Source of the DNA: Lunularia cruciata
Taxonomy: Eukaryota > Streptophyta > Marchantiopsida > Lunulariales > Lunulariaceae
Length of the DNA stretch: 64,000 bases
Assembly: GCA_948567375.1 (NCBI GenBank)
Contig: OX419757.1
Location: 47,861,665 to 47,925,664, forward strand
Direction: 5' to 3'
The notes under the pieces were generated by a model. It was not told the DNA's origin, made no database searches, and saw only the letters and a program-made list of their open reading frames with translations. The position numbers were made by a program, and so were the translations under genes. Below are positions 35,344-59,682 of this stretch, piece by piece (positions within the stretch are counted from its first letter, which is position 1; the number at the start of each line of letters is the position of its first letter).

Positions 35344-35760
35344 AAATGTGTGGCACACACATTTTTTGTTTTCTTTTTGAATTTGGAAGAAGAAGTGTAT
35401 AGAGAAGTCAAATTGCGCCTATATGGCCAAAGAAGGCAAAGAAAAGTGTCCTTGGGATGAAACCCGAGGTAACATGGCTTTGGGTCATAAGGGGAGGTAC
35501 TCGGTATTGCCCTCTTAGCATACAACCCAAAGTAAGGAGTCTTCATATTGGGGGTGCTCAACCCGAGGCAAGGACAATGTAACAACTTTCCTTTGGGGCG
35601 AGACATTCAAGAAGGGACCGTTCAAAAATGGCGGTCATACGCATGAAGGACACTTGACAGTGATAGAAGCATGCAAGTGGTGTGATTTCTTGGTAGAAAC
35701 TCGAATTGAAGAAAGACAAAGAAGGCGCAACTCTATAAAAATTGGGCTAAAGACAAAGCA

Positions 35761-38381
35761 ATGACAAGCAATTTTCCCTCGCCATTAAGAAGTCACCCTA
35801 TAGGAGATTGTGGGAAGGGAAGTAGAGTTAAAGATGTGCTGGTGTGTCAAGAAGCAATCGAGAGAGTTAATCCGGGAATAAGTAGGAAGAATAGTTCCCA
35901 GCCCAAAGTGGAAGAGAGAAAGATGGGAGGAGGGAAGAAGAATTCCAAATTTGCAGTGAGAAATCATGCAATTTGGAGGTTAGATGTGATCGCAAGAATT
36001 GAAGTCTTGAGTAGGCTTTGGATCACATTCTTGGCATGGAACTAGAATGTTAGTTTTCTAGGGTTCATGACTAAGATCATCGAGAGTAAGTGTACGATGG
36101 CCCTAAGGAAGAAGGGAAGAGAGGTAATCCGGCTTGCTGGACAGAGTCGGATTGGAGGTTAGTACTCGGAAGAGAAGCAGGCATGGAGCATGGTGCAACG
36201 TTCTTGGAGAAGGGAGAAGTAGCCAAAGAAACCCAAGAAGTGAGAGATGCCTTCTCTTTAAAGTGCACAAAGAATAATTACAAAGTAGAGAGCTATAAGG
36301 ATCCTGTCAAGAGAGAGATCGTGAGTGCTCTAGTAGCGATCTTGAAGCCAAAGAGAATGACTTATGTGATGAAGCAATAAGCGGTGTTCTTCCATAAGAT
36401 GTTTGCAGGAGAGCCAATTAATTGGGCAAAGTGTCTTCATGGGAGGACAAGACAGATGGTGTGGAATTTGTGAGATAAGTTGCATCCACATTACATTGTG
36501 CTATTTGCAGCCCATTTCTATCTGGAGCTGAACTTACACAATGCGGCAGAGCGCAATAGGATAGTATCGCATTTCCATCCTGACTTAAGAAGAGATGCCG
36601 ATGCGGAGGAGCAGCAATACATTCTTCAGATCAGGAGTAGTGATGAGTACTACACACAAATGGGGAAGAGTGTGCAGTTGGAAGTGAGTACTTCAAAGTC
36701 AAAGAGGAGGAGTCGACAAGGAGAAGAAGAAGAAGTTGAGAAAGCAAGACCTTGGAAGGCTAGAAAGGTAAACCCAAGGAAAGGAATGGTGGTCATTGCA
36801 TCATCAAAGGGAGAATTGGAAGAAGAAGCCGAGTACAAGTCCAAAGACTTGGAAAGAGAAGAAGAACCCGAGTTCACACTGTAGAGTGGAGACACAAGTA
36901 GTGATAGCGATGATGGAGGGGAGATGACATTGGTACTTGAGGAAGAGGAAGCCAAGATGGAGACCAAGGAGAAAAGTAACTCAAAATTGGAAGACAAAGT
37001 GCTAGAGCAAGAGGAGAAGAGAGTTACCATTCAAAGAGGAGTTTGTTCCAGACAAAAGGTGAAGTGTGGAGCGGGGCTAAGTAAGGTAAGAGAAGAGGAG
37101 GATGGAAGTTCAAGGAGCAAAGCATCCATTCCTATAAGGCGACTGCGGCTTAGAAGAAAGTGTCGAGTGAGGAAGAGGTGAAGAAGGAGATCACTCTGCA
37201 AGTCGAGGTAACCTCGAGTGAAGGAGTAGAGAACCTGTGGGAGGTTGTGTGCCCATTGTTAGTAAAGTTAGAGCACATGAAGAAGGAGATGCAGTCAAAG
37301 TGTCCGGAGGTGAAGATTGTGTTGCAGGTGTTAGCAAGATTAGAAGAAGAGAACTCTGAATTAAAGAAGAGTATAATCCAAGGTGGAGAGGAAAGGGAAG
37401 TACTATGAGTAGATGCAGTAGTATAGATTCAAGTGATTGAGAACTTGAGAAGAGAAGTGAGGAATAGGGAGGAACTAATAGAGAAAAATGTTATAGCAAG
37501 GGAAAGACAAATAGTTGAGTATGAAATCTTGAAGTAGCAGTTTGCTGACTCTTTCTCTACTACTCTTGCCATAGCATGGATAATTAGAAATTATCCATGC
37601 TATGGCAAGAGTAGCAGAGAAAGAGCAAGAGCTTGATAGGGTGATGGAGAGTGTAGAGGAGAAGAAGCAACTGTGGCAACGAGAGTTGATAGTGAGATAT
37701 AGAGAGGAAGAAAGGTTGAGAGAGTTACTTTGCAATCAAGAGGAAAAGATTGTGCAGAAAGAGAAGGAGAAGGAAGCTGTGAAAGCCGAGTTCAAAGCGG
37801 AATTAGCAATGTATAGAGAAGATTGGCTTGCAGATCAAGAACGGGAGAGGAAAATGAGATTGGAGCCATTGAAGGAGATTGTGATCAAGATGAATGCGAT
37901 GCTAAGTGCAGAGGCCAACATGTGCATTGAAGAAACGAGAGTACATGAGTTGAAGTTGTTGGTGCAGGAGACAAGGAGGAGAAATATGAAGGACAAAGAC
38001 TTTAATGCCTTACTTATCAGTCTAAGAACTCGTGTAGATAGAAAGATATTGGAGGTAGAAGACAATATCACAATCAGATTAGACTTAGTAAAATTAGAGA
38101 TAGATAAACTTCAGAAGGATGTCAAAGCAAAACCCAAAGTAGATAACATAGGAGTACAGATGTCTTTGGAGTTACCATTGGAGACATTAGAGAAGAGTGG
38201 GTCGGGAGATAAGGAGTTAGATAGATTACCTACTAGTGGAATTTCAGATCAGGAAAGAGAACTGTTAGATTTGGTAGAGGAATTAGGAGTTGTGAAACAC
38301 GAGGATAGAGTAGTAGTAAGTGAAGTTACTTCAGGTTTGGGTTTGAAAGCCGAGGAAGAAGTAGACATCGGATCGGATTAG
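35761..38381 (+). pseudogene. U3-encoded coiled-coil protein, giant-LTR family
   Basis: Reconstructed by eye from segments 35,761-36,045, 36,090-36,380, 36,480-36,884, 36,924-37,181, 37,160-37,408 and 37,602-38,381. The N-terminal part has AIWRLDVIARIEVLSRLWIT and FLGFMTKI. The central block has VFFHKMFAGEPINWAKCLHG, HYIVLFAAHFYLELNL and HFHPDLRRDADAEEQQY. Then follow acidic and basic low-complexity linkers. The C-terminal half is Glu/Lys-rich heptads (EKEQELDRVMESVEEKKQLW, EEERLRELLCNQEEKIVQKE, HELKLLVQETRRRN, ISLRTRVDRKILEVEDNITI), clearly coiled coil. The longest intact piece is 259 codons. No catalytic motif, zinc finger or membrane segment seen. Function unknown; the order of blocks is kept in three other copies, so it was a protein. 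Three stops share one frame; one frameshift lies near 37,175 and a palindrome at 37,549-37,625. Confidence 0.75.
37549..37625. repeat. Snap-back palindrome inside the U3 ORF
   Basis: Arms of 37 bases with one mismatch around a three-base loop (AGA at 37,586-37,588). The right arm belongs to the coding sequence (ATGGCAAGAGTAGCAGAGAA); the left arm is its inverted copy and breaks the frame. Confidence 0.9.
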
Positions 38382-39179
38382 AAACAGTTTTGAGATTTGA
38401 AGAAGTAGATATGAAGAGGTGCATTGTTAGTTTGGATCTGTATGTTAGAAGAGTTGTTGTAGAACGGTATAGTTGTTAGAACTGTCATTTGCTTCACTAT
38501 TTAAGAGTGGCATTTGTAGTCTTATGTTGTTCAGTGCTCATTATTCTAAGAATAGATAAAGCAAAATGTTGTGAAGCAGTGCTCATCGCTTGAGCTTGAT
38601 TCTGAGTATCAACATTGTGTTTGTGTTTGTGAGTGCGTGGAGCAATTTGAAGTGCAAGTCAGTGTGCTTGTTGGATGTTGGATTCCGCAACCTTGATCTT
38701 TACTCTATGTGTTTGATCCTGAATGAAGTGCAATCAAAGTAATGCTTTGACAGATTTGAGAAGAATTGTAGTGTTGGTAGTATTTTGCATTTATGAGTGC
38801 AGCGTGAAGTTGATGTGAAACAATTTGATCAAGGAAGTTGTCCCTTTAGTGGAGGAGTAGAACACAATTCTGAAGCAAAGTCATTTTGCAATGAAGTGCC
38901 ATTTTTGGGAGAGCCTGAATTATCACAATCAAGATTGTTTGGAAAGAATTGAAGGTGTTGTGATTAAGAAGTATTAATCTGTGACAATACTGCAAATCAT
39001 TACTTGTTACTCTCTTCTGGGTATGGTTTCTACCTGAGAGATTAAAGACGCAATCAAGAAGAACTACATTGTTACTGTTTGATTTCATATTTGACCAATT
39101 CAGACTCGTATCTCTATGGGAATAAACTTTACTTACCTGATTACCACAAAAGTGATATTTTCTGGGTTATCACAAAATG

Positions 39180-39447
39180 ATAACCTCATGAATTGCCGCC
39201 ATGACTATTACTCTATCATAATACTTTATAGTTTATCTAAGTTAACATGTAGATGCAATACATCTACCATTACGATTGGAAGTACCAAGGGTTCATCAAA
39301 CAAGGTGATTGCATTTAGAAAATTCTACCCAAAGCATGAGATGATAAACTACATGAAATGATGCTTGGGTAGTACATGGACAAAAAAATCTCAATGTTTT
39401 GATAGAAATGGATTTAGTGGTCTATAAATTCCATCCATCCAATTCTT
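39180..39447 (-). other. Chromovirus leader (5' untranslated)
   Basis: Between the primer-binding site and gag. It matches the leader at 42,526-42,688 (+ strand) over about 165 bases beginning AGCAAGAAT(T/G)(G/A)GATGG. No ORF. Confidence 0.7.
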
Positions 39448-39459
39448 GCTTTGATACCA
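39448..39459 (-). other. Primer-binding site, initiator Met tRNA type
   Basis: TGGTATCAAAGC on the - strand, one base after the LTR. It differs at one base from TGGTATCAGAGC, the plant consensus complementary to the 3' end of initiator methionine tRNA. Confidence 0.85.
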
Positions 39460-39460
39460 A

Positions 39461-39945
39461 TATAAAAGACCAAGACCAAGGAGAGAAATAGGAGAATGGA
39501 AGACCGTAGTGAGAGATCACATTGGGATGCTTGAATGAAGGAAAATCTGAATGCCTAGCATGAACTTGGGCTTTGTTTTTTATAGAGAGAATACAAGGCT
39601 CTTGAGAAGCTTCTCAAGAAGCTTCCTTAAGCCACCTTCTTGGAATACAAGCCAAGTTAACCAAGAAGCTTCTCAAGAAGCTTCCTTCTAGAAGCCATCT
39701 ACTTGGCATGCAAGCTAAGCTAGTTGGAAGCTTCCCAAGAAGCTACCTTGGAATGCAAGCTAAGCTAACCAAGAAGCTTCCCAAAAATCTTCCTTCTAGA
39801 GGTCACCACTTGGCATGCACATTACCCAATAATTTGAAGGTACCAAGTAGCTTCCTAGATATTTCTAGAATATTCTAGGCTAATTTGCCTTATTTGCTAC
39901 TTTGTTAGCCTTGACTAACTTGTCAATAAACTCCATATTGTTACA
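39461..39945 (-). repeat. 5' LTR, heat-shock-element family
   Basis: 485 bp, TGTAACAATATGGAG start on the - strand. Heat-shock-type triplets in register: TTC 39,863-39,865, GAA 39,868-39,870, TTC 39,873-39,875. GAAGCTTC dyads recur at 39,605-39,780. The TATA-like TTTTTTATAGAGAG region is near 39,577. Confidence 0.87.
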
Positions 39946-40727
39946 CAATGTGTATATTGTCTACCAAGGAGGGGAATATACAACCTAGCATAGCCAAAGT
40001 AGTAAATAAGAGAGCTCTAAAGTCATCCATGGCAAATAAAGGTCCCTCTTAAGGATCTCCTTGTCCTGTACTAACAATTGACTCCAAGATGGTGACTCCC
40101 TCTTATGATGAACCATGCTAATAGTAAAGGGAAGCAAGAGAACCATAGAATGACCACACAAAAGAAATAAGACTCACCAAGGATCCACTAGCCTCCATAA
40201 GCTCTCTAAAGATGGATGCCCAAGAGATGCTATTACAAGCATTCTCTATATCCATCTATAGGATGACTCACTTTGGATGGATATCCAAAAATGCCCTGAT
40301 GCTTAGGGATATAGCCTCACAACCTCCAAGTGAGTTACCTTAGACTGATGAGAGTTGAGGTGTTGTCGAAAGTGAAATAATGTTGAAGGACAATGGTACA
40401 ACTGACCAAGCACAAAAAGATCTCTCCAAGATCAATTGGTCTAATGTCTCTTTTTTCCTTCTCCATTGCAAGAAGATGAATAACACCTAACACCTGACTA
40501 ACTAATGTAGGAATATATTCCCTCACTTTTGCTATAGCTACCTAAAATAGCTTAGTAAATCCACTAGAAGGATCATCTGCTTGACGTCAATCTTTAAGAT
40601 ACTCATATACCATCCCTTACAACCCTTTTAAAGAGAAGCAAGGAGTAATGCATGACATAGATGCAAAAAGCAAGCTATCAAGACATAAAACTACTCAAGT
40701 TGATAATCCAAGACCTCTAATGGTTTT
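39946..40727 (-). pseudogene. LINE, 5' part of the preserved RT
   Basis: On the - strand, from 40,620 downwards: SSGFTKLF, VAIAKVREYIPTLVSQVLGV, MEKEKRDIRPIDLGEIFLCL, AFLDIHPK, then MDIENACNSISWASIFREL, the catalytic-palm region, GQGDP followed by a stop and EGPLFAMDDFRAL, and FPSLVDNIHIV at the chromovirus boundary, where the usual ADD box reads VDN. These are non-LTR reverse transcriptase motifs in the right order. The ORF continues at 29,811. The 5' end stops near 40,727 against a PHD-element LTR, consistent with 5' truncation during insertion. Confidence 0.75.
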
Positions 40728-41371
40728 CATGCATATATATATTGCTACACAACATACATCATTGTCAAAACACTATAGAAGCACAACTCACACATAAGTC
40801 ATACATGGACTCTCAAGTGCCACAATAATCAGTTTGTTCACACAACTCAAATCACACTCAATCAAATCAGTACTTGATCTGTCACTCAACAATCTGCTAA
40901 CAATTGGGCACTTATTATAGTCAAGCCATACTCACTCTAGCTAGGAGAATCCAAGTGATGCTTGCCGGCCTCTATCCATCATAGCCAAGAATTAGAAGGC
41001 TCAACATTAGGGAAGTGAGCTCTCTGGAGCTACACTTCAAAAATATACCCCTTGGATTCCAACCCTAATGGTCTGTTGATGGCACATCCAATGGTGTGAA
41101 TGGTGCAAGTGATGGTGGGTCCTACCATGTAGTCAATACCTTGAACACAAAATCTGATTGTCAACAAGTAGTCTTTGAGTAACTACCAAAATACTCCTTA
41201 CTACCAACACTACTACTCTAGAGTCCAAGCAATCTAGGTGCAATGCTACAAATAGCATGACAACTATCATGTGTATATGTACATTGCTATACAACATACA
41301 TCTCTATCAACATCACACAATATAGAAGCAAAAATCACACATATGTCATGCATGGACTCTCAAGTGCCACA
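40728..41371 (-). repeat. LTR of the PHD-type element, second copy
   Basis: Starts TGTGGCACTTGAGAG (- strand) at 41,371, directly after the polypurine tract CTAAGGGGGCGAT (41,372-41,384). Matches 10,464-11,175, including the internal repeat of its first 115 bp or so (second start at 40,825). About 644 bp remain; the far end abuts the truncated LINE. Confidence 0.78.
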
Positions 41372-41384
41372 ATCGCCCCCTTAG

Positions 41385-42082
41385 CTGGTGGTTAGGTTCC
41401 TCTAACTCCAAATAGCCATCCATTCCAAGTATATGGTATACCCTATGGTGGGCAAAAGATCAAGAAGTTGGGTGCTATTGAGCCCTATCATTAGTCACTT
41501 GTGTGCAATCTATATCATATAAAGGATGAAATAGCTATAGGTCAAGTACATCTAGGGCATAACTACTATCCTTGAGGAACCATCATGAGAGGAGGAGTCA
41601 TACATGCCATATGGTATCCTCTCAAACAACTATCATACACTAACATAGTAGCAACTCCACCAAAAGAGCCATATAACATACACTACAAGTCTACATGTAC
41701 AACTTCCAAGCTTGGTTCCATAGTACCATCAATGTTTGGGAGGTAGTATGGTGCACAATTGCACACATGATCCTTCCAAACAACACCATCACGTCCTTCC
41801 AACACAAGGACTTCAGATGGCAAAACCTCAAACACTCTCAAGATAGTGCAGCCTATAGAAACATCAAGTGTCATTGGTGTTGTCTACAATAGATATACAT
41901 AATTACTTGGATAAAATCAACGGATCAAGGGTCTATAACCTCCTCCTCAAATGGTAGCATAGTCTAAGGTATCCTTATGCTCAATAATTGCCAAGTTCAC
42001 AAAGGCCATTGGCATCACTCTTTGAAAGATCTCTGCTTGTTGAGAACATGCACTCATCTAGATCATCCAAGTCCAACACTAT
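41385..42082 (-). pseudogene. PHD-type Ty3/gypsy element, second copy: integrase C-terminus and PHD finger
   Basis: On the - strand. VLDLDDLDECMFS-like sequence at about 42,070, then a decayed linker, then CTILRVFEVLPSEVLVLEGR, DGVVWKDHVCNCAPYYLPN and the PHD finger at 41,682-41,548. Finger ligands: CML-Tyr (Cys lost), MLV-Tyr (Cys lost), DSC, GYH, HMAC (Cys retained), PPL, VPQG, two stops, LCPRC. Together with 10,154-10,288 it gives a full C4HC3 ancestor. The two copies lie on opposite strands and about 30 kb apart, and differ throughout, so they are independent insertions. Confidence 0.75.
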
Positions 42083-42512
42083 TATAACAATATAGAATTT
42101 AGCAATGAAGTTAGTTAGTGCTAACAATGTAGCAAGTAGGCCAAATTAGCCTAGAATATTCTAGAAGTATCTAGAAAACTTCTTAGGAAGCTTCTTGGCT
42201 AGCTTAGCTTGCACTCCAAGTTGATAGTTTTTAAAAGGAAGCTTCTAGAAGCTTCCAACTAGCTTAGCTTGCACGCCAAGTAGCCAACTTCCAGAAGGAA
42301 TTTGTCTACTTGAGAAGCTTCTTGGTTAACTTAGCTTGCACTCCAAGAAAGTAGCTCAAGGAAACTTCTTGAGAAGCTTCCCAAGAGCCTTATATGCCTC
42401 ATATAAATACCAAGGCCAAAGCTCATGCTAGGCATTCGGAGTTTCCCACACTCGAGTATCCCAATGTAATCATCCATTCTCCTAGTTCTCTCTTTGGTCT
42501 TGGTCTTTTACA
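42083..42512 (+). repeat. 5' LTR, heat-shock-element chromovirus (second copy)
   Basis: 430 bp, from TATAACAATATAG (ancestral TGTAACAATATGG) to GGTCTTTTACA. Followed by one base and a primer-binding site. TATAAATAC at 42,402-42,410 is the TATA box, so the heat-shock elements at 42,154-42,176 and 42,238-42,255 lie 150-250 bases upstream of it in U3. The element body is interrupted after 175 bases of leader by the giant-LTR element. Confidence 0.88.
42154..42255 (+). promoter_or_regulatory. Heat-shock element array in LTR U3
   Basis: Two arrays fit the HSF consensus of alternating GAA and TTC triplets spaced by two bases. Array 1: GAA 42,154, TTC 42,159, GAA 42,164, ATC 42,169 (one mismatch), GAA 42,174. 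Array 2: GAA 42,238, TTC 42,243, GAA 42,248, TTC 42,253, all perfect (GAAGCTTCTAGAAGCTTC). Both arrays also occur in the LTR fragment at 60,217-60,555. Binding by heat-shock factors is inferred from the motif. Confidence 0.75.
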
Positions 42513-42513
42513 T

Positions 42514-42525
42514 TGGTATTAGAGC
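42514..42525 (+). other. Primer-binding site, initiator Met tRNA type
   Basis: TGGTATTAGAGC, one change from the TGGTATCAGAGC consensus. The leader at 42,526-42,688 follows and matches that at 39,447 downwards. Confidence 0.85.
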
Positions 42526-42688
42526 AAGAATGAGATGGATGGAATTTATAGACCACCAAATTCATTTCCACCAAACCATTGGGATTTTTGTGTCAAGGTA
42601 CTACCGAAGCATCATTTTACATAATTCATCACCTCATGTTTTGGGCAGAATTTTCTAAATACAATCAACTTGTTTGAGGATCCCTTGA

Positions 42689-45600
42689 TGTGGTACCCAC
42701 ATTTTTTGGCTTTTACAAGTTTTAAAGAAGAAATGCGTTGGTAAAGCCAAAAGAGGGCTAAATGAGGAAGAAACACAAAGAATTGTATGTTTAGCATAAA
42801 CCCAAAGTAGACCTTGGGTCAAAGTCAAAAGGACTTGGGTCAGGCATATATAAGTATGAAGCCAAAAACAAAGGACTTTGTATTAGGATGTGCAACCTGA
42901 TCCAAAGAACTTGTAACAACTTATCTTGGAGGTCAACTAATCAAAAAGTACATGGGAAGAAAGTGACTACCTCAAGGCCAAGATGACCTTGACAGTGACA
43001 AGAAACCAACCTATAAAATTGGTGGGTAAATGAAGAAGTGATTGAGAATAACTGATCAATGAAAGAGTATAAAATTGAGATTTAGACAAGGAAGCGCTAC
43101 AATGTCTAGATGATATCTTGTTCAAAGTCAACCCAAAGGAATGAAAACTACAAGTACGCAAGAGGAGTGGGTTAGAGTCTTGGGTCTTTCATAAGTAGAG
43201 AGTCAAGAAGCATATGATGGCTCCAAAGGGAAATGAGTTGAGTGCAGTGAGAGGTCTTGCAATTGTCAATTGGATGTAGTGGCAAGGATCAAAGTTTTGT
43301 CCAGACTTTGCATCCTATTTCTAGCCTATAATTAGAATTTGAGCTTTCTAAGGTTCATGGCAGAAATCACTACCAACAATCACAAGGATGGGCCCAAGCA
43401 TGAAGAGACAAGAGGTAATCCGGCTTGATGGATTGAGTTGGATTGGGGATCGGTCTTGGTAAGAGAAGCAAGAGAGGTAGGAAGTATCACCTTCTATCAA
43501 AAGTGTGATGCTTTGGAAGAAATTGCTGAGGTGAGGAATTATTTAAGTAGACCTCACACCAAGAATGGGTAGAAGGTGGATAGCTTCAAGGATCCAATAT
43601 GAAGAGGGATCATAAGCATGATGATGGCTATGTTTAAGCCAAAGCAAACCACCTATGTAATGATGCAATAGGTAGTCTTCTTTCACTAGATGTTTGCAAG
43701 GGAGGCAATGGACTGGGCAAGGAGTTTGCACCAACATGTTGGGCAGATGATCACCAGTTGGAGAATGGATATCCTGCTCCACTACTTTGTACCCTTTGCA
43801 ACTCACTTCTACTTTGGGCTAAACCTACTTAGATTGGAGGAGAGAGGATGGATGGTGTCTCATTTTCACCCCCAATTTATGTAGAGAAGCAGATGGGGAT
43901 AAATGATATTTCATCGCATGAAGGCAATGAGTATTGCTTGAAGAGTGGCAATAGACATCCCTATGCCAAGGAAGAGAAGTAGACCCAAAGGATGAATCAT
44001 GCCAGTGTAGCCCCAGAAGATACAAAGACTAAATCCAAAGCCCGCACCGGTAGAAGTGAAAGACTCAACTTTGGAGGAAGAATCAAAAGGAGAAATGGAG
44101 TCAAAGAAAGAAGCCTTAGGAGCATAAGAAGAATTAATACTATGGAGCAAAGAGTCTAGCAGTGGTAGTGAAGGAGAGGCCAAAGTTAAGCAATCAAGAG
44201 AAGGGATTGTTGGAGAAGAAGAGTGGAGTTTTATGAGGCAATTGACTACATAAAGGTAGAGAGAAGCCATGTCTGGAGTTGCTAGCAAATGAGCTGGAAG
44301 ATGAAGAAGTAGGAGATGGTGCTTTGGTATTTCCAAGGGTGGCAAGAACAAAGAGAAGCACTCAAGTGGTCATTGCAGGACCAAGCAAAGCTGAAGACAA
44401 AGAAGAGACCTCAGAGGTCGAGGCATTGAAGATACAAAGATTGCATCTTTGGGATAAGGCGCCAACAAAAGAAGTGCACACCAAAGACAAAGACATTAGA
44501 GACATGGAAGGAAGATATGACGGAGTTGAGTATCTATCAAAGATCATTTGTCCTTTGCTTGTGCTTCTACAACAAAAAAAGTGGAGCTGAAGAGCCATCA
44601 TCTGGAAGTGAGGAATGAGTTGGAAGTAGTAACAAAATGGGATGAGGTGACTTTGGAGTTGAGGAATAAGCTAACCTGAGGAGAGAAGGAAGCCAAAGAA
44701 CTTTGGGCTGAAGCAGTTCTTCAGAGGAAAAGCTTGGACTTCTTGAAGAAAAACTTGTAAAGTGCAATAATTAATTGAAGGAGCAAAAGGCATTGGTCAA
44801 GAAAATGAAACATGAAGTTGCCAATGTTTGAGTAGAGGTCATACACTCAAAGGAAATTGCAGTACTAATGGAGCAAGAGCTGAAGAGTTCGAAGAAGAGC
44901 GCAATAGAGAAAGACTAAGCCTGACAACAAGATTTGACATAACGTAATTGGGAGGAGGAACGATTGCAAGGGTTGCTCCAAGGAGTTGAAGATCACTTAG
45001 TCCAGTGTGGGCAAGAGGAGGCATTGAAAGATAAATTTGAGGATGAGTTGACTATGTATTGGAACAAGTTGGAAGTGGAGAGAAGTAAGAAGAAGGTAGT
45101 TCCAAGTGTAGAGTTAGATGTAGTAGGAGCAATCATGAAGGAGTTGAAAGTGATGCTAAGTACTAAAGTCAAGGTGAATTAGAAGAGGCAAGGCTGCACA
45201 AGTTGAATTTGTTGGTGCAGGAGACAAGGAAGAGGAAAGCAAAAGATCCAAAATTGAACAATCTTCTGATTCCTTTAAGAGATTGAGTAGATAGGAAAAT
45301 GTTAGAGGTAGGAGACAATGTCTATCTCAGATTAGATTTTATTAGATCAGATTTAGATTCACTTTGTAGTGAGATAAAGATGAATAAGAAGTCTGAAGTT
45401 GTAGAAGTAGGAGTGCAAGAGTCTTTGGGTGAGCTATCTGAGGTATTAGAGAAGAGTGGGTTAGTGGATAAAGAAGTAGATAGATTACATATGTCTGCAA
45501 TTGAAGTTCAGAGTGAAGAGATAGTAGAAATAGAATATTAGTAGGAGTAATAAAGAGACCCAAAGAACAAGAAGTACTTGTAGGAATATCAGGTCTGGAA

Positions 45601-46411
45601 GCCATAGTTGAGGTTGGCATTGGATTGGAGTAGTAATAGATTTGAGATTTGAAGAGGTGGTTTGCTATTTTGGATCTATAGGTTGGTAAAGTTGTTGTAG
45701 AATGGTATTTTAGTCAGTAATTATTGAAGTGCTCTGACTATTTAAGGAAGCATCTGCAATGTGTTGTTATTCAATATTTGTATCTTTGAAGTTGAGTAAA
45801 GCAAAGTGCTATAATTCAATGCTTGTTGTTTCAACTTAATTCCAAGTATCAATCTTGTGTGTGTTTGTAAAGTGTTTGGAGAATTTTGAAGTGCAAGTGA
45901 GAGTGTTGGATGTTGGATTCCACATTGCTGATTTCATTTTGTGTGTTTAATCTTGTGTGTTTAATCTTGATCTAAGCAATGCCTTGACAAAGCAATGCCT
46001 TGATGAATCTATGCGGAATTCTAAAGTTGGTAGTATTCTGCATTGGTGAGCACAACACGGGGTTGATTCAAAGAAATTTTGATCAAGGAAGTTGTGCTTT
46101 TAGTGGAGGGGTGGAACACAATTCTGAGGCAAAGTAGCCTTCTTCGGAAGAATCTACATTATCACAATCAAGATTGTTTGGAAAGATTTGATAGAGTTGT
46201 GATTATGAGTGTGAATTTGTGATGAGATTGTGAGTTAGTGCTTGTTACTCTCTTTTGGGTGTGGTTTCTACGTGAGAGACTAAAGAAGAGCTCAAGAAGA
46301 ACCGTTTGGTTATTGCTTACTTTGTATTTGATCATTTCTGAATCATATCTCTATGGGAACAAACTTTTACTTGTTGATTATTGCAAAAGTAATACTTGCC
46401 GGGTTGTCACA
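42689..46411 (+). repeat. Giant 5' LTR (3.72 kb) of a Ty3/gypsy element
   Basis: Starts TGTGGTACCCACATTTTTTG inside the chromovirus leader and ends GGGTTGTCACA. It is followed at 46,419 by a tRNA primer-binding site and then gag, so it is the 5' LTR of the element whose body lies at 46,412-47,278 and 55,105-59,680. TATA box TATTTAA at 45,739-45,745, 672 bases before the LTR end (676 and 671 in the other copies). A second TATA-like CATATATAAG near 42,846 precedes the ORF. U3 carries the coiled-coil ORF. Confidence 0.85.
43201..45540 (+). pseudogene. U3-encoded coiled-coil protein, second copy
   Basis: Same block order as the copy at 35,761-38,381, on the same strand relative to the LTR. MAPKGNELSAVRGLAIVNW at 43,219, NLSFLRFMAEI by frame change, then MFAREAMDWARSLHQHVGQM (43,690), LLHYFVPFATHFYFGLNLL, ERGWMVSHFHP. 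Further on: AGPSKAEDKEETSEVEALKI, LHLWDKAPTKEVHTKDKDIR, EYLSKIICPLLVLLQQKK, and coiled-coil segments with LHKLNLLVQETRKRKAKDPK, MLEVGDNVYLRLDFIRSDLD and SLGELSEVLEKSGLVDKEVD. Nonsense codons and frameshifts break it into pieces of 60-100 codons. Function unknown. Confidence 0.7.
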
Positions 46412-46418
46412 TGATTTT

Positions 46419-46437
46419 TGGCACTATTGCCAAGGAT
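46419..46437 (+). other. Primer-binding site of the giant-LTR element
   Basis: TGGCACTATTGCCAAGGAT, seven bases after the LTR end. It is a mutated form of TGGCGCCGTTGCCGGGGAT, the aspartate-tRNA-type site common in the plant Athila/Tat branch. Confidence 0.7.
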
Positions 46438-46500: not shown

Positions 46501-47278
46501 TGTCCGCATCAAGAGAACAATGGGAAGTGAGAGTTCATTAACAAAATTTGCACAATGAGGAAGAAGAATGCCAAAAGAGCCAATTCACCTTTGACAAAGT
46601 TGAGAAAGAAGCATTGGATTTGCAACTTCTTCATGAAGTTCAAGAAGCCTTGAAAGACCTTGAGCATAAGAAACAAGAGATTGGGTGGTGAGTCTACTTT
46701 GCATCTCCAAATCCCAAGAAGAAAGATGCAAGCAGACAAACATATTTGCTAAAATCCAATACTCTGACTTCCTCAAGAGCTGTCAAGGGAGCCGGTTTCA
46801 TAAAAGAATCCATTCATGAAAAGACAACACAAATCTTCATGGAAGAAGAGTGTCAATACCTTCTTCATACAATTCCTTGACTTGTTTGAAGGGATTTGAA
46901 AGAGCCAATTGAAGATATTGAACCTCTATCTTTGACTCAAGTTGAAGTTGATGTAACAAAGAAGAGCAATCTATCAACAAAGACTCCATTTTGAACTTGA
47001 TGAACCCTTGAGCTGAATTTGACAAACAATCACCAACCAGTACCTTGAGTCCATCAAGCCCCACATTACCGCAACTTATTTCTTAGAGTTACAAAATGAC
47101 TTGACAACCCATTACCAACAATCCTATCCAAAATATAAGGAGATGAAGCAAGATGAAAGATCTTGATGAATTCATTAAAGAATTCAAAGTCATCTCCTTT
47201 GCCAATAAGGAGCATGGCTCTATTGACAGGCAACGCATTTTTCCAAGTTTGCTACAAAAGAAAGCTGGGAGTTGGTAC
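46501..47278 (+). pseudogene. gag: Giant-LTR element gag, N-terminal part
   Basis: Readable from MSASREQWEVRVH through a stop to QNLHNEEEECQKSQFTFDKV, EKEALDLQLLHEVQEALKDL, then NPKKKDASRQTYLLKSNTLT and VKGAGFIKESIHEKTTQIF. It degrades after 46,880. At 47,278 it is cut by the insertion of the element 47,279-55,104 and resumes at 55,105, with GTAC repeated on each side. Several stops. Confidence 0.6.
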
Positions 47279-47968
47279 TGTGACCCGGCCTGTCTCTCAC
47301 TTAGGATGAACCTCTGATGGCTATTATGGTAGCGCACCATGGACTAAGAAGGCAAGGAACCCAAACTCCATCATACTCCTCCAAGGCTAACACTCCAAGA
47401 CTCAAGACATTGTTCACTAGAGAACTCAATGAGAGAGAGATAGTTGCAAATGAAAGGATGATGAGTACATCCTCACCCCTTGTTTATATACTTGTGAAAT
47501 AATTACGTACCAAAGTTACTAATTACCGTAGTAACTCAAGTTACTAGACTAAAAGTCAAGTAAAGTCAAAAAGTAGAAAGGAATATCCATTCACATGAGC
47601 ATATTCCCCTAAGCATGTGGTCTTATCTTGACCCAACCACTAAATCAAGGATTCCTTCACATGGGCTATCCTTGGACTAAAGAAGAATCCAAAACAAAAA
47701 GGCTTGCGGGCCCAAGAGTTCTCAACTCTTTCCTCAAAGCCAAACACCTAGGAATAATACCAAGTCAACACACTAAAATCCAAAATAGTGGTGCTCATCA
47801 TTTCTACCTACTCTAAAGTAAAGTCCCCTCTATCTTAGCTATGACTAACTTTTGCTAACCATGACTAATATAGAACCATCCTTTATCTCTATAAATAATA
47901 TCTCTTAAGTACTTGTAATACCAAGCTAAATATCACAATACCACACACATGCACAAATGGGTCTTACA
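47279..47968 (-). repeat. 3' LTR of the young Ty3/gypsy element
   Basis: 690 bp, TGTAAGACCC at its 5' end on the - strand and CCGGGTCACA at its 3' end. Directly preceded in element orientation by the polypurine tract at 47,985-47,969. Confidence 0.92.
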
Positions 47969-48082
47969 TTTACCCCCGGACTAAGTTTTCACTTTGTCCT
48001 CAAAGTGAAGGCCTCTCTACCTTCTATGGTACATCTTCAACTTATCATGGTTAATCCTATCAAAGTGTCTTCTTCCCAACTC

Positions 48083-49395
48083 CTAGAGATCATAGGTGTA
48101 ATTTCCCCACACCTTCTCTACTATGAAAGGTCCAAAGTACTTAGGCAAAAACTTCTTTTGCACTCTCTTGAATCGAATGGAATCAAACAACATTACCCAA
48201 TCACCTTCTTTGAAATGCTCCACCTTCTTCTTGCCTTGCCTCTTGTCATAGCTCTCCTTTTGTTTCCTTTGGGCTTGCTCCACTCGAACCATAGCAACTG
48301 CTCTTGCCTCTTCCAACTCCATGAGTTGATCCTTCCTTGACTTCTCATCACCTCCTTGTGCTTTCTTCAATCTCCTATGAATGCTTTGGAAGGTAGGAAG
48401 ATCAAAGTGAATAGGTAAGGTAGACTCAATACCATACACCAATTGAAATGGAGAAAATCCGGTGGAAGTCTTCATGGTTGTCCTATACTCCCACAAAACT
48501 GCATGAATCCTCTTGTCCCAATGATGTTTAGCCCCCTCCATTTCTGCATCTTTGGCCAACATCATGCACAAGGTCTGATTGGTTCTCTCTGCCAAGCCAT
48601 TGGAATTTGGCTTATAGGATGTAGTTAATCTATGTGTGATAGAGAAATGTTGTAGCATGGCTGTAGTAATGCTTCCTGTAAACTCTCCTCCTCTATTAAA
48701 AACTAACTCCAAAGGGCATCCAAACCTAGTGATAATGCGTTCATAAAGAAATCTACCCACTTCATCTTCATTCTTGTCCCTCAATGGTCTAGCCTCAACC
48801 CACTTGGTAAGGTAATCAGTAACTACCACAATGTACCGATTGTTCCTTGGGGTTATGTTGAGAGAAACCTACAAAATCAATTCCCCACTTCTCAAAAGGT
48901 CCTAGCAATGGAATTGATCTAAGTGGTGGAGTGGATGTAGAATTTCTAGCAAAAGCTTGACAAACATGACAAGTTTTGCAATAATCAAGACAATCCTTGA
49001 AAATCCCTCTCCAATGGTAACCTGCATCTAGAATCTTGAAAGCACTCACCTTTCCACATACTAAACCTTCATGAAACTCCTTTATGAGTAGGATAGACTC
49101 TTCCTTACCCACTGCTCTTTGAAGTAGACCATCTGCTCCTTGGTGAAAAAGAATATCCTCCACCATTGTGTAAGGTCTAGATCTTGCTGCAAGGGTCTTC
49201 CTCTCCCTAGCATGCATCCCTTCTGGATAGTTACCTCTTCTCACAAAATCCACAATCTCCTTGTACTCAATTGGAACCTCTTGAGTGACTGAGATTGTCA
49301 TGAGCTTCTCATCTGGGAAGGAATCATCCACTGGCTCATCTCCATCATGATCATAGGCTCTTGATAACAAATCAGCATTTGCATGTTTCTTTCCT
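48083..49395 (-). pseudogene. pol: Integrase of the young Ty3/gypsy element
   Basis: Zinc module near 48,950-49,080 (FHEGLVCGKVSAFKILDAGY, YCKTCHVCQAF). One His of the HHCC set appears replaced (VCGK where GGH is usual). The core starts GPFEKWGIDFVG at about 48,900, then a frameshift near 48,820. The second block resumes at 48,829 with VVTDYLTKWVEARPL, ITRFGCPLELVFNRGGEFTG (second catalytic Asp reads Asn), TTSYKPNSNGLAERTNQTL (Glu present), HWDKRIHAVLWEYRTTMKTS, FSPFQLVYGIE and the GPFIVEKVWGNYTYDL end. The 248-codon C-terminal frame is intact. Mutated catalytic positions indicate an inactive copy. Confidence 0.88.
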
Positions 49396-50554
49396 GGCCT
49401 ATCCTCAATGGTGTAGTCATACTCAGATAAGAGTATCATCCACCTTGCTAGTCTCCCTTCAACATTAGGCTTGTTGAAGATGTACTTCAAAGCCTTGTGA
49501 TCCGTGACAATGGTGGCTTTCCCTCCAATCAAGTAGTGTCTAAACTTCTTGAGACCAAAGATCATTGCCAACCCTTCTCTCTCCGTGACAGAGTAGTTCT
49601 TCTCTGTTGAAACCATCTACCTACTAGCATAAGCTATTGGATGATCATGCCCATCTTGGTCTAATTGACTAAGAGTGCATCCTATAGCTACATTAGAAGC
49701 ATCAATGAAGAGGATGAAAGGCTTATTCCAATCAGGTTTAGCAAGAATTGGAGCTACAACAAGGGATTGCTTGAGCTCCTCAAAAGCTTTGAGAGCATCC
49801 TTTTCCTCCAAAATCACCATGTAATCTACACCCTTCTTCATGAAGATGGTCAATGCATAAGCTTTGTTGGAAAATGAGAAGATGAACCTCCTATAGTATC
49901 CAACCATCCCCAAGAATAGGCGTAACTTTGTCAAGCTTGAAGGGAATGGAAGGTCTGAGATTTTCCTCACCTTCTTAGGATCAACTGCTATTCCATCCTT
50001 GGAGATGATGTGCCCCAAAAGTAGACCTTCTTCACATCTCAAAATGCACTTCTCTGAGTTGAGTGATGCATTTGCCTCATCCAAGCGTTGCAAGACTTTG
50101 ATTAGGTACTCAAAGTGCTCCTCCTTGCTCCCATAGACACAAAAGTCATCAATGAAGTCTCTCACAAATTTCCCAATGAAAGGTTCAAATACCTTGTTCA
50201 TGAACCGTTGGAATGTGGCTGGAGCATTGCAAAGCCCAAAAGCATGACCTTGAAAGCGTAAGTTCCCCAAGGTTTGGTGAACGTGGTGAGTTGTTGATGC
50301 TTTGGTGCAATCTTGATTTGGTTGTATCCACTATAACCATCTCCAAAACTGAACCTCTCATGACTTGCAACCTCCTCCAAGATCTCATCAATGAATGGCA
50401 ATGGGTAGTAGTCCTTCTTGGTAACAACATTGAGCTTCTTGTAATCCACACATACCCAAAGCTTGCCATTATTTTTCTTCACAATGACAATTGGAGACAC
50501 CCATTCTGAATTCTCCACCTCAAAGATAAAATCCAGCCTCCTTGAGATTATCAA
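49396..50554 (-). pseudogene. pol: Reverse transcriptase and RNase H of the young Ty3/gypsy element
   Basis: RT begins in the frame 50,554-50,198 (SEWVSPIVIVKKNNGKLWVC, VDYKKLNVVTKKDYYPLPFI, GDGYSGYNQIKIAPKHQQ), shifts frame near 50,260, then continues 50,270-49,617 with FGLCNAPATFQRFMNKVF and the catalytic DFIDDFCVYGSKEEHFEYL. Connection: EEGLLLGHIISKDGIAVD and FLGMVGYYRRFIFSFS. RNase H: FILFIDASNVAIGCTLSQLD, HPIAYASR, a TAG stop at 49,617-49,619, then MVSTEKNYSVTEREGLAMIF and DHKALKYIFNKPNVEGRLAR, ending at DLLSRAY. One stop and two frameshifts. Confidence 0.9.
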
Positions 50555-51780
50555 TCTCCTTCTTCACAACCAAAGATATTGGTGGGCTAATGCAACGTTG
50601 CTTTTGGCGGATTGGTCTTGCATGTGACTCCACCTCTATCTTGTGCTCCTCCAAGGTGACTTCCTTCAAATCCTTGTAACTTAAAGCAAACACATGGATG
50701 AACTTGCGGAAAATCTCCTCAAATCTCACCTTCTCTTCCTTGGTAACATTTGGACCATACTTGAGGGTAGATAACCTTCTCTCTACCTCCTCAAGTGTCA
50801 ATGGTGATTTATCTGGGTCCTTCAAATCCTCTGGCTTAGGTGAAAAATCCATAGCACACAAAGGATATACATTTGAATCAGATTCAGATTCATCCTCCTC
50901 CGTGGAAGTCTCCTCTTTCATGCTTGTGTCCACACCTGAAGCTCCTTCTTCAGAATCTGATTCCCAATAATCAGAAGATGGTGTATCTGAATGTGAAGTG
51001 TTGGTGGTGTTAGTCACAGGATTTGTGACTCTATGGTTTGATGGCCCAATCCTCAAGTACCCTTTGTGCCATCGATCAGTTGTGCGTGCTGCTCTGAACC
51101 ATGGCCTCCCAAGAAGTAAGTCATAGCTTGAATCCTTCAAGACTTGGAAAGTCATGAGATTTTGAACTCCCATAACTGAAACTACCACTTTATCCATCAC
51201 CCCTACTGGTCTAACTTGTTGCTTGTTTGCCATGCTCACCACAAATGTTGAAGGTCTTGAGGGTATCATACCTAACTTCTTCATCAACCTTTCTGACATG
51301 GCATTCACTGCTGATCTTCCATCAACCAATGCATCCTTGATGTTGTGACCATTCACTCTCACATCAATCTTGGAGGCATATTCACAAGCCTCCCATGGTG
51401 CTGGCTTGGCATCCACCACCCCCATTGATACCGGAACTTTTGCCTTCTTCTTCCTCTTGCTCCTTGTAGAACTCAAACCACCTCTAAGCTCCTTTCCCAA
51501 GGTAGGGTTCAAAGCAATTAATTGGCCCACTGTGATGTTAGCCTTGTGACTACCAACATCCTCCAACACATTGTAGTTCCATTGTTGCTTTGAGATCAAG
51601 AAGTCCTCCATCCCCAACTTCTTCCTTGGGAGTCTTTGTTGTTGATGGTGTTGAGATGCGAGTGCTTCTAGTAGACATAGGAGTATCCTTGCTTGAAGTA
51701 AATCCTTGAGAAGAGTGAACATCCTTTGCAAAACGAGCTCTCTTCTTCTCTTGTGCCAAAAGCTCCAAATTAAGAGTTTA
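50520..51780 (-). pseudogene. pol: Protease and linker of the young Ty3/gypsy element
   Basis: A frame of 437 codons (50,520-51,833). The protease domain at about 51,375-51,070 reads VRVNGHNIKDALVDGRSAVN, where the active-site motif usual in this branch (DGGS) reads DGRS, then VMGVQNLMTFQVLKDSSYDL and LLGRPWFRAARTTDRWHKGY. An acidic linker follows (ESDSEEGASGVDTSMKEETS), leading into the RT N-terminus (LVVKKEIDNLKEAGF). The first 70 codons before about 51,600 make better sense in the gag frame (LELLAQEKKRARFAKDVHSS), so a frameshift lies near 51,600. Confidence 0.8.
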
Positions 51781-52848
51781 AGAGTCCTTGGAGTTTGAGC
51801 ACTCTCCCTTCTCATACTTGCTCTCAACCACATCTATGGATGGTATCCCCTTACCTTTGTTGGGATTAGGAGCCACTTGGGTTTCACTACCTCCCTCTTT
51901 CCCTCTATTGGCTCCCTCATAACCCCTTCTTCCATGGTAAGTGGAATTTGGGCAATTCCTTTGGATATGGCCTCTTCCTCCACAACCAAAACAATTTCTA
52001 TCATTGAAATTGTTGGCTGGTTGGCCTCCTCTATATGGATAGTTTCCATAACTCTTAGGCCCTCTCCCTTCATTCTGATCCACCTCTCTCTTCTCCCATA
52101 GTTGCACCACATTGATCTTGAGATCCGCAAGTTGTTCTGTGATGGTTTGGAGTGGATCTTTTGGTGGAGGTGCAAGAACTGGAGCAACTACTACTTGTGG
52201 TGCAACCCTTGCCACCAAAGTATCAGAAGTTCCACCATACTTGTAGCCTTGAGGAGGATGCACAACCTCCTTCACCACCAAATCACTCTCATCCCCTTCC
52301 AAACTCTCCTCCATACGAATTGCGATCTTGATAGCTTCAACCTTGGAAGAAGGTTTCTCATATCTCACCTTGCGTCTAATTTGTGGTCTCAACCCTCCCA
52401 CAAAATTCTTGGTGAGCATGGCTCCTATGACAATCATTGTAGTCTCCACATCATCCCCACCCTTCCTCAACACTATGCGAAATCTGGACTCCAACTTTTC
52501 CACTCTTTCCACATAGACTCTCACTTTCTCTCCATCTCCTTGCTTGAGAAATGTAACCTCACTCATCAATCTCTCATAACTCTTATCAGGAAGAAAGTTC
52601 TCAATGAGTGCTGAAGTCAAAGTCTCCCAAGACTCCTCTTCCCCATCTCTCCTCTCTCTCTTTTGGTATTCTGACTCATACCATGTAGGTGCTGCATCCT
52701 CAAAGAAATCTGGTAATAATGAGGCCCACTCATTCTTCCTCCTCTCATTGTTTCCTATGCAAGCTCTCTTGAAGTCTCTCATAAAGGCCTCCACATCTTC
52801 TCCATCCTTGCCAAAGAAAACCGGAAGTTTCCCCATCTTAACCCTCAC
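51778..52848 (-). CDS. gag: Gag of the young Ty3/gypsy element
   Basis: Intact 356-codon frame. Capsid region: MGKLPVFFGKDGEDVEAFMR, EWASLLPDFFEDAAPTWYES, WETLTSALIENFLPDKSYER, FLKQGDGEKVRVYVERVEKL, NFVGGLRPQIRRKVRY. A proline-rich linker follows, then a single CCHC zinc knuckle CFGCGGRGHIQRNC at about 51,990, followed by a basic Gly/Arg tail. This is the standard retrotransposon gag layout and length. The frame ends at TAA 51,778-51,780, and the same frame stays open for about 70 further codons, so gag and pol were either separated by a read-through stop or once fused. It is the best preserved retrotransposon ORF here and could still be translated. Confidence 0.88.
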   Translation of the reverse strand: MRVKMGKLPVFFGKDGEDVEAFMRDFKRACIGNNERRKNEWASLLPDFFEDAAPTWYESEYQKRERRDGEEESWETLTSALIENFLPDKSYERLMSEVTFLKQGDGEKVRVYVERVEKLESRFRIVLRKGGDDVETTMIVIGAMLTKNFVGGLRPQIRRKVRYEKPSSKVEAIKIAIRMEESLEGDESDLVVKEVVHPPQGYKYGGTSDTLVARVAPQVVVAPVLAPPPKDPLQTITEQLADLKINVVQLWEKREVDQNEGRGPKSYGNYPYRGGQPANNFNDRNCFGCGGRGHIQRNCPNSTYHGRRGYEGANRGKEGGSETQVAPNPNKGKGIPSIDVVESKYEKGECSNSKDS

Positions 52849-53069
52849 TATCTTTCTCTTCTCTCAAATTTTTTTTCTCTTTTCTTTTCTCTCACTCTAT
52901 AACTAATAGAGTATATACATGACGAACACCATTTGAGAGTAATCCACTCTAGGGAACACAAAAGGTTCAGGTTGCTCCAAGATTTCTATAGCAACATCAA
53001 ATCCTAGAGTGCATATTAATCGAACCCTCATAGATAGTCTATCCATGAGTTGAAAGATTATCTCCATCA

Positions 53070-53718
53070 CTAATCTTGAGAACTAGCTGATGAAGGTGGT
53101 AGTATTTCTGTAGTTGTACTAAGACTCTCTCCAAGATCCTTCACCAAAGTTTCCAAAAGTGCTTTTACTCCACTACACTCATGTCCTTTTGGAAGTCCTT
53201 CCACTCCACAAACCTCACACAACTCCTTGGTCTTAGATCTTCTCCCTCCCAATCTTGGTGAAGAAGGTCCAACATGCAAACCCAAGTCAAGTAAGCCTCT
53301 CCTTTCCCTCAATCTCTTTCTCTCAAAGGTCAATGGACATGAACTTGTCTTATGTCCCTGCTCCCCACATAGAAAGCACTTAGACTCACTCTTTCCTCCA
53401 AGTGGTGTAGGTTTCTGGATCCTCTCAACACTCTCTTCAAATTCTATTGTAAACTCTCTTTTCCTCAAATCCACCCCTACAATCACCTCAAACCCTCGAG
53501 GAACCTTACATAATCTCAATTTCCACTCTTGATGACCCTCCATGTTCCCAAGAGGAATCTAAACACTCAAACATGCTTTTTGTTGATCTCAAACTCCTCA
53601 TGCATGAGATCTCCATGCATGAGATCTCCACTCTGCAGAATTGACCCTTCCTCACAATGTCACTCACATCTCCCAACCAGTATGTCACAATCCTCTGAAC
53701 TTTTTCCCACTTAATCAC
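53070..53718 (-). CDS. Extra zinc-knuckle ORF upstream of gag
   Basis: 157-codon frame (53,543-53,070) between the 5' LTR and gag, starting MEGHQEWKLRLCKVPRGFEV. A CCHC knuckle CFLCGEQGHKTSSC is at about residues 57-70, followed by a basic stretch and a second cysteine/histidine cluster (CEVCGVEGLPKGHEC, residues 109-123). The upstream frame 53,718-53,506 (WEKVQRIVTYWLGDVSDIVR) overlaps it and may be its original N-terminal part, shifted. The VPRGF....VGVDL block before the knuckle resembles plant DUF4283/zf-CCHC_4 proteins in spacing. This position is unusual, because gag with its own knuckle follows. It could be a captured nucleic-acid-binding protein or a duplicated gag segment. No function is assigned. 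Confidence 0.6.
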
Positions 53719-54410: not shown

Positions 54411-54414
54411 AAAA

Positions 54415-59680: not shown

Positions 59681-59682
59681 TG

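What the first reader, a model, noticed from the sequence alone, without database searches (positions are those of the whole stretch)
35349..46411. Ty3/gypsy family with 3.7-3.8-kb LTRs that carry a protein-coding ORF in U3
Two complete units (35,349-39,174 and 42,689-46,411) share TGTGG.AC starts and GTCACA-type ends. One has a perfect 5-bp target duplication; the other is followed by a tRNA primer-binding site and gag. In both, and in the - strand copy at 61,698, a TATTTAA box sits 671-676 bases before the LTR end, so about 3.1 kb is U3. That U3 encodes a protein with a conserved central block (FVPF..HFY..LNLL) and a long coiled coil, with the same block order in every copy. LTR-encoded proteins are rare; the best-known precedent is the U3 ORF of a mouse mammary tumour retrovirus. 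In such a layout only the 3' LTR copy would be in the genomic RNA. I know of no described plant element of this kind, but I cannot search.
Basis: partly seen in the sequence, partly recalled or inferred. Interest (0 to 1): 0.9.

Follow-up and report, generated by a model that had tools for sequence, protein, structure and literature searches.

The report
Plant retrotransposon gene inside its LTRs
A very abundant jumping element in this plant genome, probably a liverwort, carries a protein-coding gene inside the long repeats at its two ends, a layout best known from a mouse retrovirus, so that leftover lone repeats also keep a copy of the gene.

Summary
35,349-39,174 is a solo LTR with a perfect 5-bp duplication. 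42,689-46,411 is the 5' LTR of a Ty3/gypsy element whose empty site is visible in a paralogous repeat. A two-LTR copy elsewhere (C1:73,500,551-73,514,273) has a perfect duplication, a tRNA-Asp-like primer site, a pol stop 92 bp before a polypurine tract, and then the 3.79-kb LTR; both its LTRs carry the ORF. The genome holds 1,825 LTR/primer-site and 1,765 polypurine/LTR junctions, controls 0. Between subfamilies, changes concentrate at third codon positions of the ORF (p down to 2e-8) but not in non-coding LTR; between the two LTRs of one insertion they are even. So the ORF was selected in active elements and decays after insertion. Best reading: a U3-encoded accessory gene, perhaps with its own promoter. 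No homologue or Pfam family was found. Function is unknown; no transcript data, and no complete frame among 294 scored rows.

The parts
35344..35348 (.). target site duplication AAATG, left copy (right copy 39,175-39,179)
35349..39174 (+). LTR1: solo LTR, 3,826 bp
   Evidence: duplication on both sides; 26 other copies spanning query 1-23 to 3,812-3,826 at 86-88% identity, among 37 scored of 16,506 candidates
35734..35740 (+). TATAAAA box 189 bp upstream of the candidate ATG in LTR1
35923..38381 (+). U3 ORF of LTR1, about 810 codons, broken by stops and frame changes; candidate ATG at 35,923, stop TAG 38,379-38,381 in register with LTR2 and LTR4
   Evidence: phase test
36279..36680 (+). conserved helix-rich block (KDP..., FFH.M...W, HFY..LNL, SHFHP) of LTR1
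   Evidence: helices only in a low-confidence model
37549..37625 (+). inverted micro-duplication (hairpin) in LTR1's ORF; not found in the two C1 LTRs or LTR2
38498..38504 (+). TATTTAA, putative U3/R promoter of LTR1
42689..46411 (+). LTR2: 5' LTR of the window's element, 3,723 bp
   Evidence: empty site and flanks; primer site follows
43068..43074 (+). TATAAAA box 146 bp before the ORF in LTR2
   Evidence: 28 of 40 ungapped distinct copies exact, 38 of 40 with at most one mismatch; 181 of 3,665 seven-mers are kept better
43214..45633 (+). U3 ORF of LTR2, broken
45739..45745 (+). TATTTAA, putative U3/R promoter of LTR2
   Evidence: 26 of 30 ungapped distinct copies exact, 30 of 30 with at most one mismatch; 8 of 3,665 seven-mers are kept better
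46418..46436 (+). primer-binding site, decayed tRNA-Asp type
   Evidence: less decayed in the C1 element; tRNA sequence recalled
46542..47278 (+). gag pieces, first part
   Evidence: translation and position only; the one piece scanned, 46,692-46,877, has no Pfam match
47279..55104 (-). younger nested Ty3/gypsy element (LTRs 97.4% alike) that splits gag
55178..55627 (+). gag, second part (capsid)
   Evidence: Ty3_capsid E 4e-5, below the curated cut-off
57026..59634 (+). RT, RNase H and integrase pieces, then the pol stop
59681..60218 (+). first piece of the 3' LTR (LTR positions 343-879)
60548..61695 (+). second piece of the 3' LTR or of a related LTR (positions 246-1355), with an open 135-codon core block 61,291-61,695; the LTR end is at C6:47,934,426 outside the window
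61698..64000 (-). LTR4: minus-strand LTR of a related subfamily, cut by the window end; ORF stop at 62,488-62,486
5945..6352 (-). distant third-lineage copy of the same protein block
   Evidence: tblastn E 8e-4 in the window; own family, 150 of 150 scored loci

Best explanation
A large family of Ty3/gypsy elements carries a protein-coding gene of about 810 codons inside U3 of its 3.7-3.8-kb LTRs. The polypurine tract lies between pol and this gene, so plus-strand synthesis would start upstream of it; each reverse transcription would copy it to both ends, and solo LTRs keep it. Shown: LTR boundaries, duplications, primer site, polypurine tract, the ORF in 5', 3' and solo LTRs, and past purifying selection on the ORF. 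Inferred: genomic RNA starts at the TATTTAA box behind the gene, so it carries the gene once, at its 3' end; the gene may also be transcribed from its own TATAAAA box in U3. Its product, with a helix-rich block, a basic nuclear-signal-like patch, an acidic stretch and a charged tail, probably acts in trans as a nuclear accessory factor for the element, for instance against silencing.
For: Solo LTR with duplication AAATG/AAATG. Window element: joined flanks align without a gap across the junction to a paralogous copy of the interrupted repeat. C1 element: duplication ATCTT/ATCTT, primer site, pol stop 92 bp before GAGGGAGGGGG, then the 3' LTR; LTRs identical at 3,413 of 3,761 sites. C6 element: GTGGT/GTGGT. 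LTR nested in an LTR: CCCAT/CCCAT. Junctions 1,825 and 1,765, controls 0; of 8 same-strand primer-to-polypurine pairs within 15 kb among the exact matches on C1 and C2, 6 are 6,112-6,169 bp apart; opposite strands 0, reversed order 2. Phase tests (third/first/second codon position): LTR1-L3b core 125/80/66 (p 2e-8), LTR1-LTR2 core p 1e-5 and coil p 5e-6, LTR1-LTR4 coil p 5e-7; non-coding ends p 0.30-0.87; LTR2 against the window's 3' pieces p 0.30-0.97. C1 5'-3' LTR 116/117/112, even. Boxes: TATAAAA 28 of 40, TATTTAA 26 of 30 exact. Basic patch in 29 of 30 core loci.
Against: No row among 150 core and 144 coil rows shows the whole frame open; the longest open frames are 454 and 471 aa against about 810 codons. 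Not significant: LTR2-LTR4 mid p 0.34 and coil p 0.11, LTR1-L3b N-part p 0.11; LTR1-C1 mid p 0.50, LTR2-C1 mid p 0.15 and coil p 0.14. On the core tree terminal branches are also uneven (533/401/530), and for the first 83 codons internal and terminal do not differ (p 0.35); many of those loci were found by protein similarity. 181 of 3,665 seven-mers are kept better than the TATAAAA box. No RNA data. The structure model failed (mean pLDDT 35.5), so function is inference only.
Confidence: 0.82

Rival explanations
1. The upstream TATAAAA box is the promoter of the genomic RNA. The ORF then lies behind the cap site in R/U5 of the 5' LTR and is the first gene of the genomic RNA, upstream of gag, rather than a U3 gene.
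For: The TATAAAA box lies 146 bp before the ORF and is exact in 28 of 40 copies.
Against: The downstream TATTTAA box is kept better (26 of 30 exact; only 8 of 3,665 seven-mers are kept better), and gag would need reinitiation or splicing behind an ORF of about 810 codons (inference).
Confidence: 0.15
2. The open frames are a by-product of purine-rich LTR sequence; the LTR does not encode a protein.
For: The region is strongly purine-skewed, and none of the 294 scored rows has the whole frame open.
Against: Third-position excess in the ORF's frame across subfamilies, absent from non-coding LTR and from LTR pairs of one insertion; the stop codon is in register in three subfamilies; an ATG-GCN-CCN-type motif lies at LTR 520-551 in 12 of 40 copies against 0 of 342 other windows.
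Confidence: 0.03
3. The ORF is a captured host gene or an old insertion in the LTR that rides along and does nothing for the element.
For: No relative was found, so the origin is open.
Against: Selection between subfamilies, and a related block in a third, much diverged lineage with same-strand copies 9,938 bp apart, point to long use by elements.
Confidence: 0.08
4. The ORF is internal, between pol and a 0.7-kb 3' LTR, and the 3.8-kb unit is not an LTR.
For: Extra ORFs downstream of the polyprotein region are common in plant Ty3/gypsy elements (PMC6317226, passages read).
Against: Target duplications flank the 3.8-kb unit; the polypurine tract sits before the ORF; a two-LTR copy repeats all 3.79 kb.
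Confidence: 0.01

Closest known systems
Mouse mammary tumour virus U3 ORF (sag/naf)
   Same: ORF in U3, so in both LTRs; a second promoter in U3, P2, that directs sag is described for MMTV (PMC9412291, passages read), and a conserved TATA-like box before the ORF is seen here
   Different: Animal retrovirus with env; here a plant Ty3/gypsy element and an ORF of about 810 codons, promoter activity untested. Similarity to sag was not tested directly; the Pfam scans gave no credible match
Plant Ty3/gypsy extra ORFs (eORF-3'F) of Athila, Ogre, Retand and Tat
   Same: Sense ORF downstream of pol, primer site not of tRNA-Met type, usually no known domain (PMC6317226, passages read)
   Different: Here the polypurine tract precedes the ORF, so it belongs to both LTRs. 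[quoted passage not shown] that they are internal is my understanding
Retrosat2 (rice)
   Same: LTRs over 3.2 kb and an ORF of unknown function
   Different: Its ORF0 lies upstream of the gag-pol ORF (PMC3485330, abstract and introduction read)
[not shown]
   Same: Non-chromovirus Ty3/gypsy of liverworts without the additional RNase H (PMC10508981, passages read)
   Different: No LTR-encoded ORF is mentioned in the passages read; phylogenetic placement was not tested here

Membership tests
LTR retrotransposon, Ty3/gypsy order of domains | gag, RT, RNase H, integrase in this order between two LTRs | tested here: met
   capsid 55,178 and RT 57,395 (both just below the curated cut-offs), RNase H 57,852 and 58,118 (above), integrase zinc domain 58,525 (below) and weak core 58,737, E 0.08
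LTR retrotransposon | TG...CA LTRs with 4-6 bp target duplication, primer site after the 5' LTR, polypurine tract before the 3' LTR | tested here: met
   the C1 5' LTR ends in TCATA instead of TCACA
Tat/Athila (OTA) superclade | non-chromovirus RT/INT phylogeny | not tested
   no reference set at hand; a tRNA-Asp-like primer site fits (tRNA sequence recalled; PMC6317226 lists tRNA-Asp among non-chromovirus primers)
Tat clade | additional archaeal-type RNase H | tested here: inconclusive
   none recognised in the pieces scanned; pol is broken and only pieces were scanned
Element with U3-encoded gene (MMTV-like layout) | ORF between the 5' end of U3 and the U3/R promoter, in both LTRs | tested here: met
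   the U3/R boundary itself is inferred from the TATTTAA box
Element with U3-encoded gene (MMTV-like layout) | own promoter in U3 | tested here: inconclusive
   conserved TATAAAA box only
eORF-3'F of plant Ty3/gypsy | sense ORF downstream of the polyprotein region | tested here: met
   the ORF follows pol and the polypurine tract
eORF-3'F of plant Ty3/gypsy | ORF in the internal region, before the 3' LTR (my understanding, not stated in the passages read) | tested here: not met
   pol stop, 92 bp, polypurine tract, then the LTR with the ORF
Pfam PF20167 Transposase_32 (likeness recalled) | match to the family model | tested here: not met
   no match in hmmscan; 0 matches in the whole genome, but the controls did not ring either, so a distant relation is not excluded
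Athila ORF-1, plant mobile domain, Transposase_28 | match to Pfam PF03078, PF10536, PF04195 | tested here: not met
   no match in hmmscan of broken ORF pieces; the genome-wide PF03078 search did not complete

The most novel reading that the evidence does not exclude
Each LTR, including solo LTRs, is a self-contained promoter-plus-gene cassette for a nuclear accessory protein that helps the family in trans. By having its polypurine tract upstream of an accessory gene the element puts two copies into every insertion and one into every solo LTR. The layout is shared by several diverged subfamilies, perhaps also by a third lineage, in one genome and may have contributed to that genome's expansion.
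Probability: 0.35. Interest if true: 0.88.

Novelty: new variant of a known kind. Interest (0 to 1): 0.77.

Why it matters
LTRs are usually treated as non-coding. Here an accessory gene sits inside the LTR of a plant retrotransposon family with about 1,800 junctions of each kind in one genome, so solo-LTR formation, normally the loss of coding capacity, leaves the gene in place. That makes testable whether solo LTRs can supply a trans-acting factor, how plus-strand priming decides what counts as LTR, and why some plant LTRs are giant. Repeat annotation that expects coding sequence only between LTRs would overlook such genes.

Tried and rejected
Core block (135 aa) and a three-row alignment against 5.8 billion proteins: no hit. 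The third search, a control with the nested element's RNase H/integrase ORF, gave 16 hits at E 1e-20 or better, one with a named plant; plants look thinly represented, so the negatives are weak. PDB by sequence: one hit at E 0.67. Pfam at lax cut-off: only chance-level matches. AlphaFold from three sequences: pLDDT 35.5, not used for a fold search. dN/dS: dS saturated and shifted-frame controls unclear, dropped for phase tests. A hairpin in LTR1 suspected of driving a frameshift is absent from the two C1 LTRs and LTR2. A first Fitch test held only 4 sequences and was repeated with 53. Box counts counted some loci twice; one search repeats them with 5 rows dropped (4 second fetches of a place, 1 twin of a duplicated segment). 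LTR boundaries of the third-lineage pair on C2 were not found.
Full report
What is there. The window (C6:47,861,665-47,925,664 of a 566-Mb genome) holds one complete solo LTR, one 5' LTR, broken 3' LTR pieces and one reversed LTR of the same family. LTR1 (35,349-39,174) is flanked by AAATG on both sides. LTR2 (42,689-46,411) is followed by a decayed primer site and gag pieces; a younger minus-strand Ty3 element (47,279-55,104, LTRs 97.4% alike) splits gag, and pol runs on to 59,634.

Boundaries of the window's element. Its 3' LTR continues beyond the window and ends at C6:47,934,426. The 5' and 3' flanks read CTTGA and CTTGG, 4 of 5 alike. Joined, they align without a gap across the junction to another copy of the interrupted repeat at 39,180-39,420 (minus), which shows the empty site. 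The 3' LTR lacks its first 342 bp next to pol and contains a repeat and a duplicated stretch, so its own start could not be seen here.

Complete copies. C1:73,500,551-73,514,273 (minus) has ATCTT on both sides, a primer site ending in GATGCCGGGGA, a pol stop 92 bp before GAGGGAGGGGG-TA and then the 3' LTR. Its two LTRs agree at 3,413 of 3,761 sites, with 270 transitions and 78 transversions. A second two-LTR copy (C6:43,778,098-43,789,033, shorter inside) has GTGGT on both sides. One LTR is nested in another with CCCAT on both sides.

Sampling of other copies. Of 30 loci brought in by LTR2 (the window's own copy included), 10 had both ends within the searched stretch: 3 carry the primer site at 20-21 of 25 (one is the window's; two look like copies of one duplicated segment), 3 have a perfect duplication, 2 match at 4 of 5, 1 at 3 of 5, and 1 has by eye a polypurine-like stretch before it. 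Of the loci with only the start found, two have the polypurine tract at 18 and 19 of 20 and one more by eye. Of 30 core-block loci (the window's own included), 20 have the LTR start 650-1,001 bp upstream (at most 4 mismatches in 18); in 4 of these 20 at least 10 of 12 bases just before it are purines, against 5.8% of 12-mers in the same loci. Genome-wide, the LTR-end/primer-site pattern occurs 1,825 times and the polypurine/LTR-start pattern 1,765 times, both with up to 3 mismatches and 0 control hits. Among the exact matches listed for C1 and C2 (86 and 63), 8 primer-to-polypurine pairs lie within 15 kb on the same strand; 6 of them are 6,112-6,169 bp apart. There are none on opposite strands and 2 in reversed order.

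The ORF. In LTR1 it runs from about 35,923 to the TAG at 38,379-38,381, broken by stops and frame changes. The stop is in register in three subfamilies. Phase test, mismatches at third/first/second codon positions in the frame read off the open segments: LTR1-LTR2 core 136/92/89 (p 1e-5), coil 130/91/78 (p 5e-6); LTR1-L3b core 125/80/66 (p 2e-8); LTR1-LTR4 coil 131/88/75 (p 5e-7). Non-coding stretches: p 0.78, 0.74, 0.30, 0.87, 0.80. LTR2 against the window's own 3' pieces: p 0.30-0.97, even. Not significant: LTR2-LTR4 mid 0.34 and coil 0.11, where frame changes in LTR2 mix the phases, and LTR1-L3b N-part 0.11. LTR1-C1: core p 0.007, coil p 1e-4, mid 0.50; LTR2-C1: core p 0.009, mid 0.15, coil 0.14. 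Between the two LTRs of the C1 element: 116/117/112 overall and even in each part. On a tree of 53 core copies, internal changes at codon positions 1/2/3 are 156/132/220 (p 5e-6) and terminal changes 533/401/530 (p 9e-6); internal and terminal differ at p 0.012, but not for the first 83 codons alone (p 0.35). Two non-coding stretches are even (p 0.10-0.79). Many of these copies were found by protein similarity, which favours constraint.

State of copies. Of 150 scored core rows, 13 have no stop in the block, the query included. Of 144 scored coil rows, 28 have none, the query included. No row shows the whole frame open (longest 454 and 471 aa). Only the best candidates were scored, so intact copies elsewhere are not excluded. 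I single out no copy.

Two boxes. In 56 distinct rows given, TATAAAA 146 bp before the ATG of LTR2 is exact in 28 of 40 ungapped copies and within one mismatch in 38 (3 more rows are gapped there); TATTTAA 672 bp before the LTR end is exact in 26 of 30 and within one mismatch in 30 (1 more is gapped). Of 3,665 seven-mers, 181 are kept better than the first and 8 better than the second. For MMTV a U3 promoter that directs sag is described (PMC9412291, passages read).

Third lineage. The minus-strand block at 5,945-6,352 belongs to another large group: 150 of 150 scored rows, from 11,428 candidates. Within the three sets of scored rows, same-strand pairs 9-16 kb apart number 1 (core), 3 (third lineage) and 3 (coil) against about 0.13-0.14 expected in each; one opposite-strand pair in that range is in the coil set. 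One third-lineage pair is 9,938 bp apart, against 9,934 between the two LTRs of the C1 element; its shared sequence, about 70-78% alike with one inverted stretch, reaches at least 1.3 kb upstream of the block, but I could not find its LTR ends. That this lineage has the ORF in its LTRs is therefore likely, not shown.

Protein. No credible Pfam match, no homologue, no usable model. Behind the block a basic cluster stands in 29 of 30 loci by a strict pattern; the remaining one has a similar cluster by eye. A nuclear role is inference.

Host. The nearest named protein to the nested element's RNase H is from Marchantia paleacea, 81% over 29% of the query. The matches lie mostly on eight contigs of 60-85 Mb. 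A liverwort is likely. Lunularia cruciata, with a 580-Mb assembly enlarged by Ty3/Gypsy bursts and an estimated 2,827 full-length LTR elements (PMC9985172, passages read), would fit, but this is not proven.

Known or not. Ten text searches of the open-access library gave no plant element with an LTR-encoded ORF among the listed titles, abstract openings and passages read; two of them aimed at it by phrase alone. Most papers of subscription journals are not in that library; of the 2011 survey of extra ORFs in plant Ty3/gypsy elements only the citation was seen.

Noticed in passing
5945-6935 (minus strand): A diverged copy of the same protein block lies next to a pair of inverted LTR-like arms (5,014-5,747 and 8,477-9,213, about 90% alike); the genome holds a large family of this lineage, including a same-strand pair 9,938 bp apart.
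   Followed up: partly
47279-55104: Young minus-strand Ty3/gypsy element with 690-bp LTRs 97.4% alike, flanked by GTAC on both sides; part of its RNase H ORF is 81% identical to a Marchantia paleacea protein.
   Followed up: partly
29814-30302, 39286-39943, 42085-42687, 60222-60557: A dispersed repeat of about 600 bp with internal tandem structure; one copy is the insertion site of the window's element, another sits inside its 3' LTR pieces.
   Followed up: partly
18763-23009: Probable exons of a host gene; one ORF (19,634-20,239) matches Pfam Foie-gras_1, as in TRAPP-type trafficking proteins (recalled).
   Followed up: no
37549-37625: Near-perfect inverted micro-duplication in LTR1's ORF, private to this copy among the four LTRs compared.
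   Followed up: yes
1-4970: Plus-strand Ty3/gypsy-like coding remains (RT match at 2,144-2,599), apparently of another lineage than the window's element.
   Followed up: no
L003 and L004: Two LTR2-type copies 60 kb apart on C7 with identical scores and identical flanks where compared, probably a recent segmental duplication.
   Followed up: no
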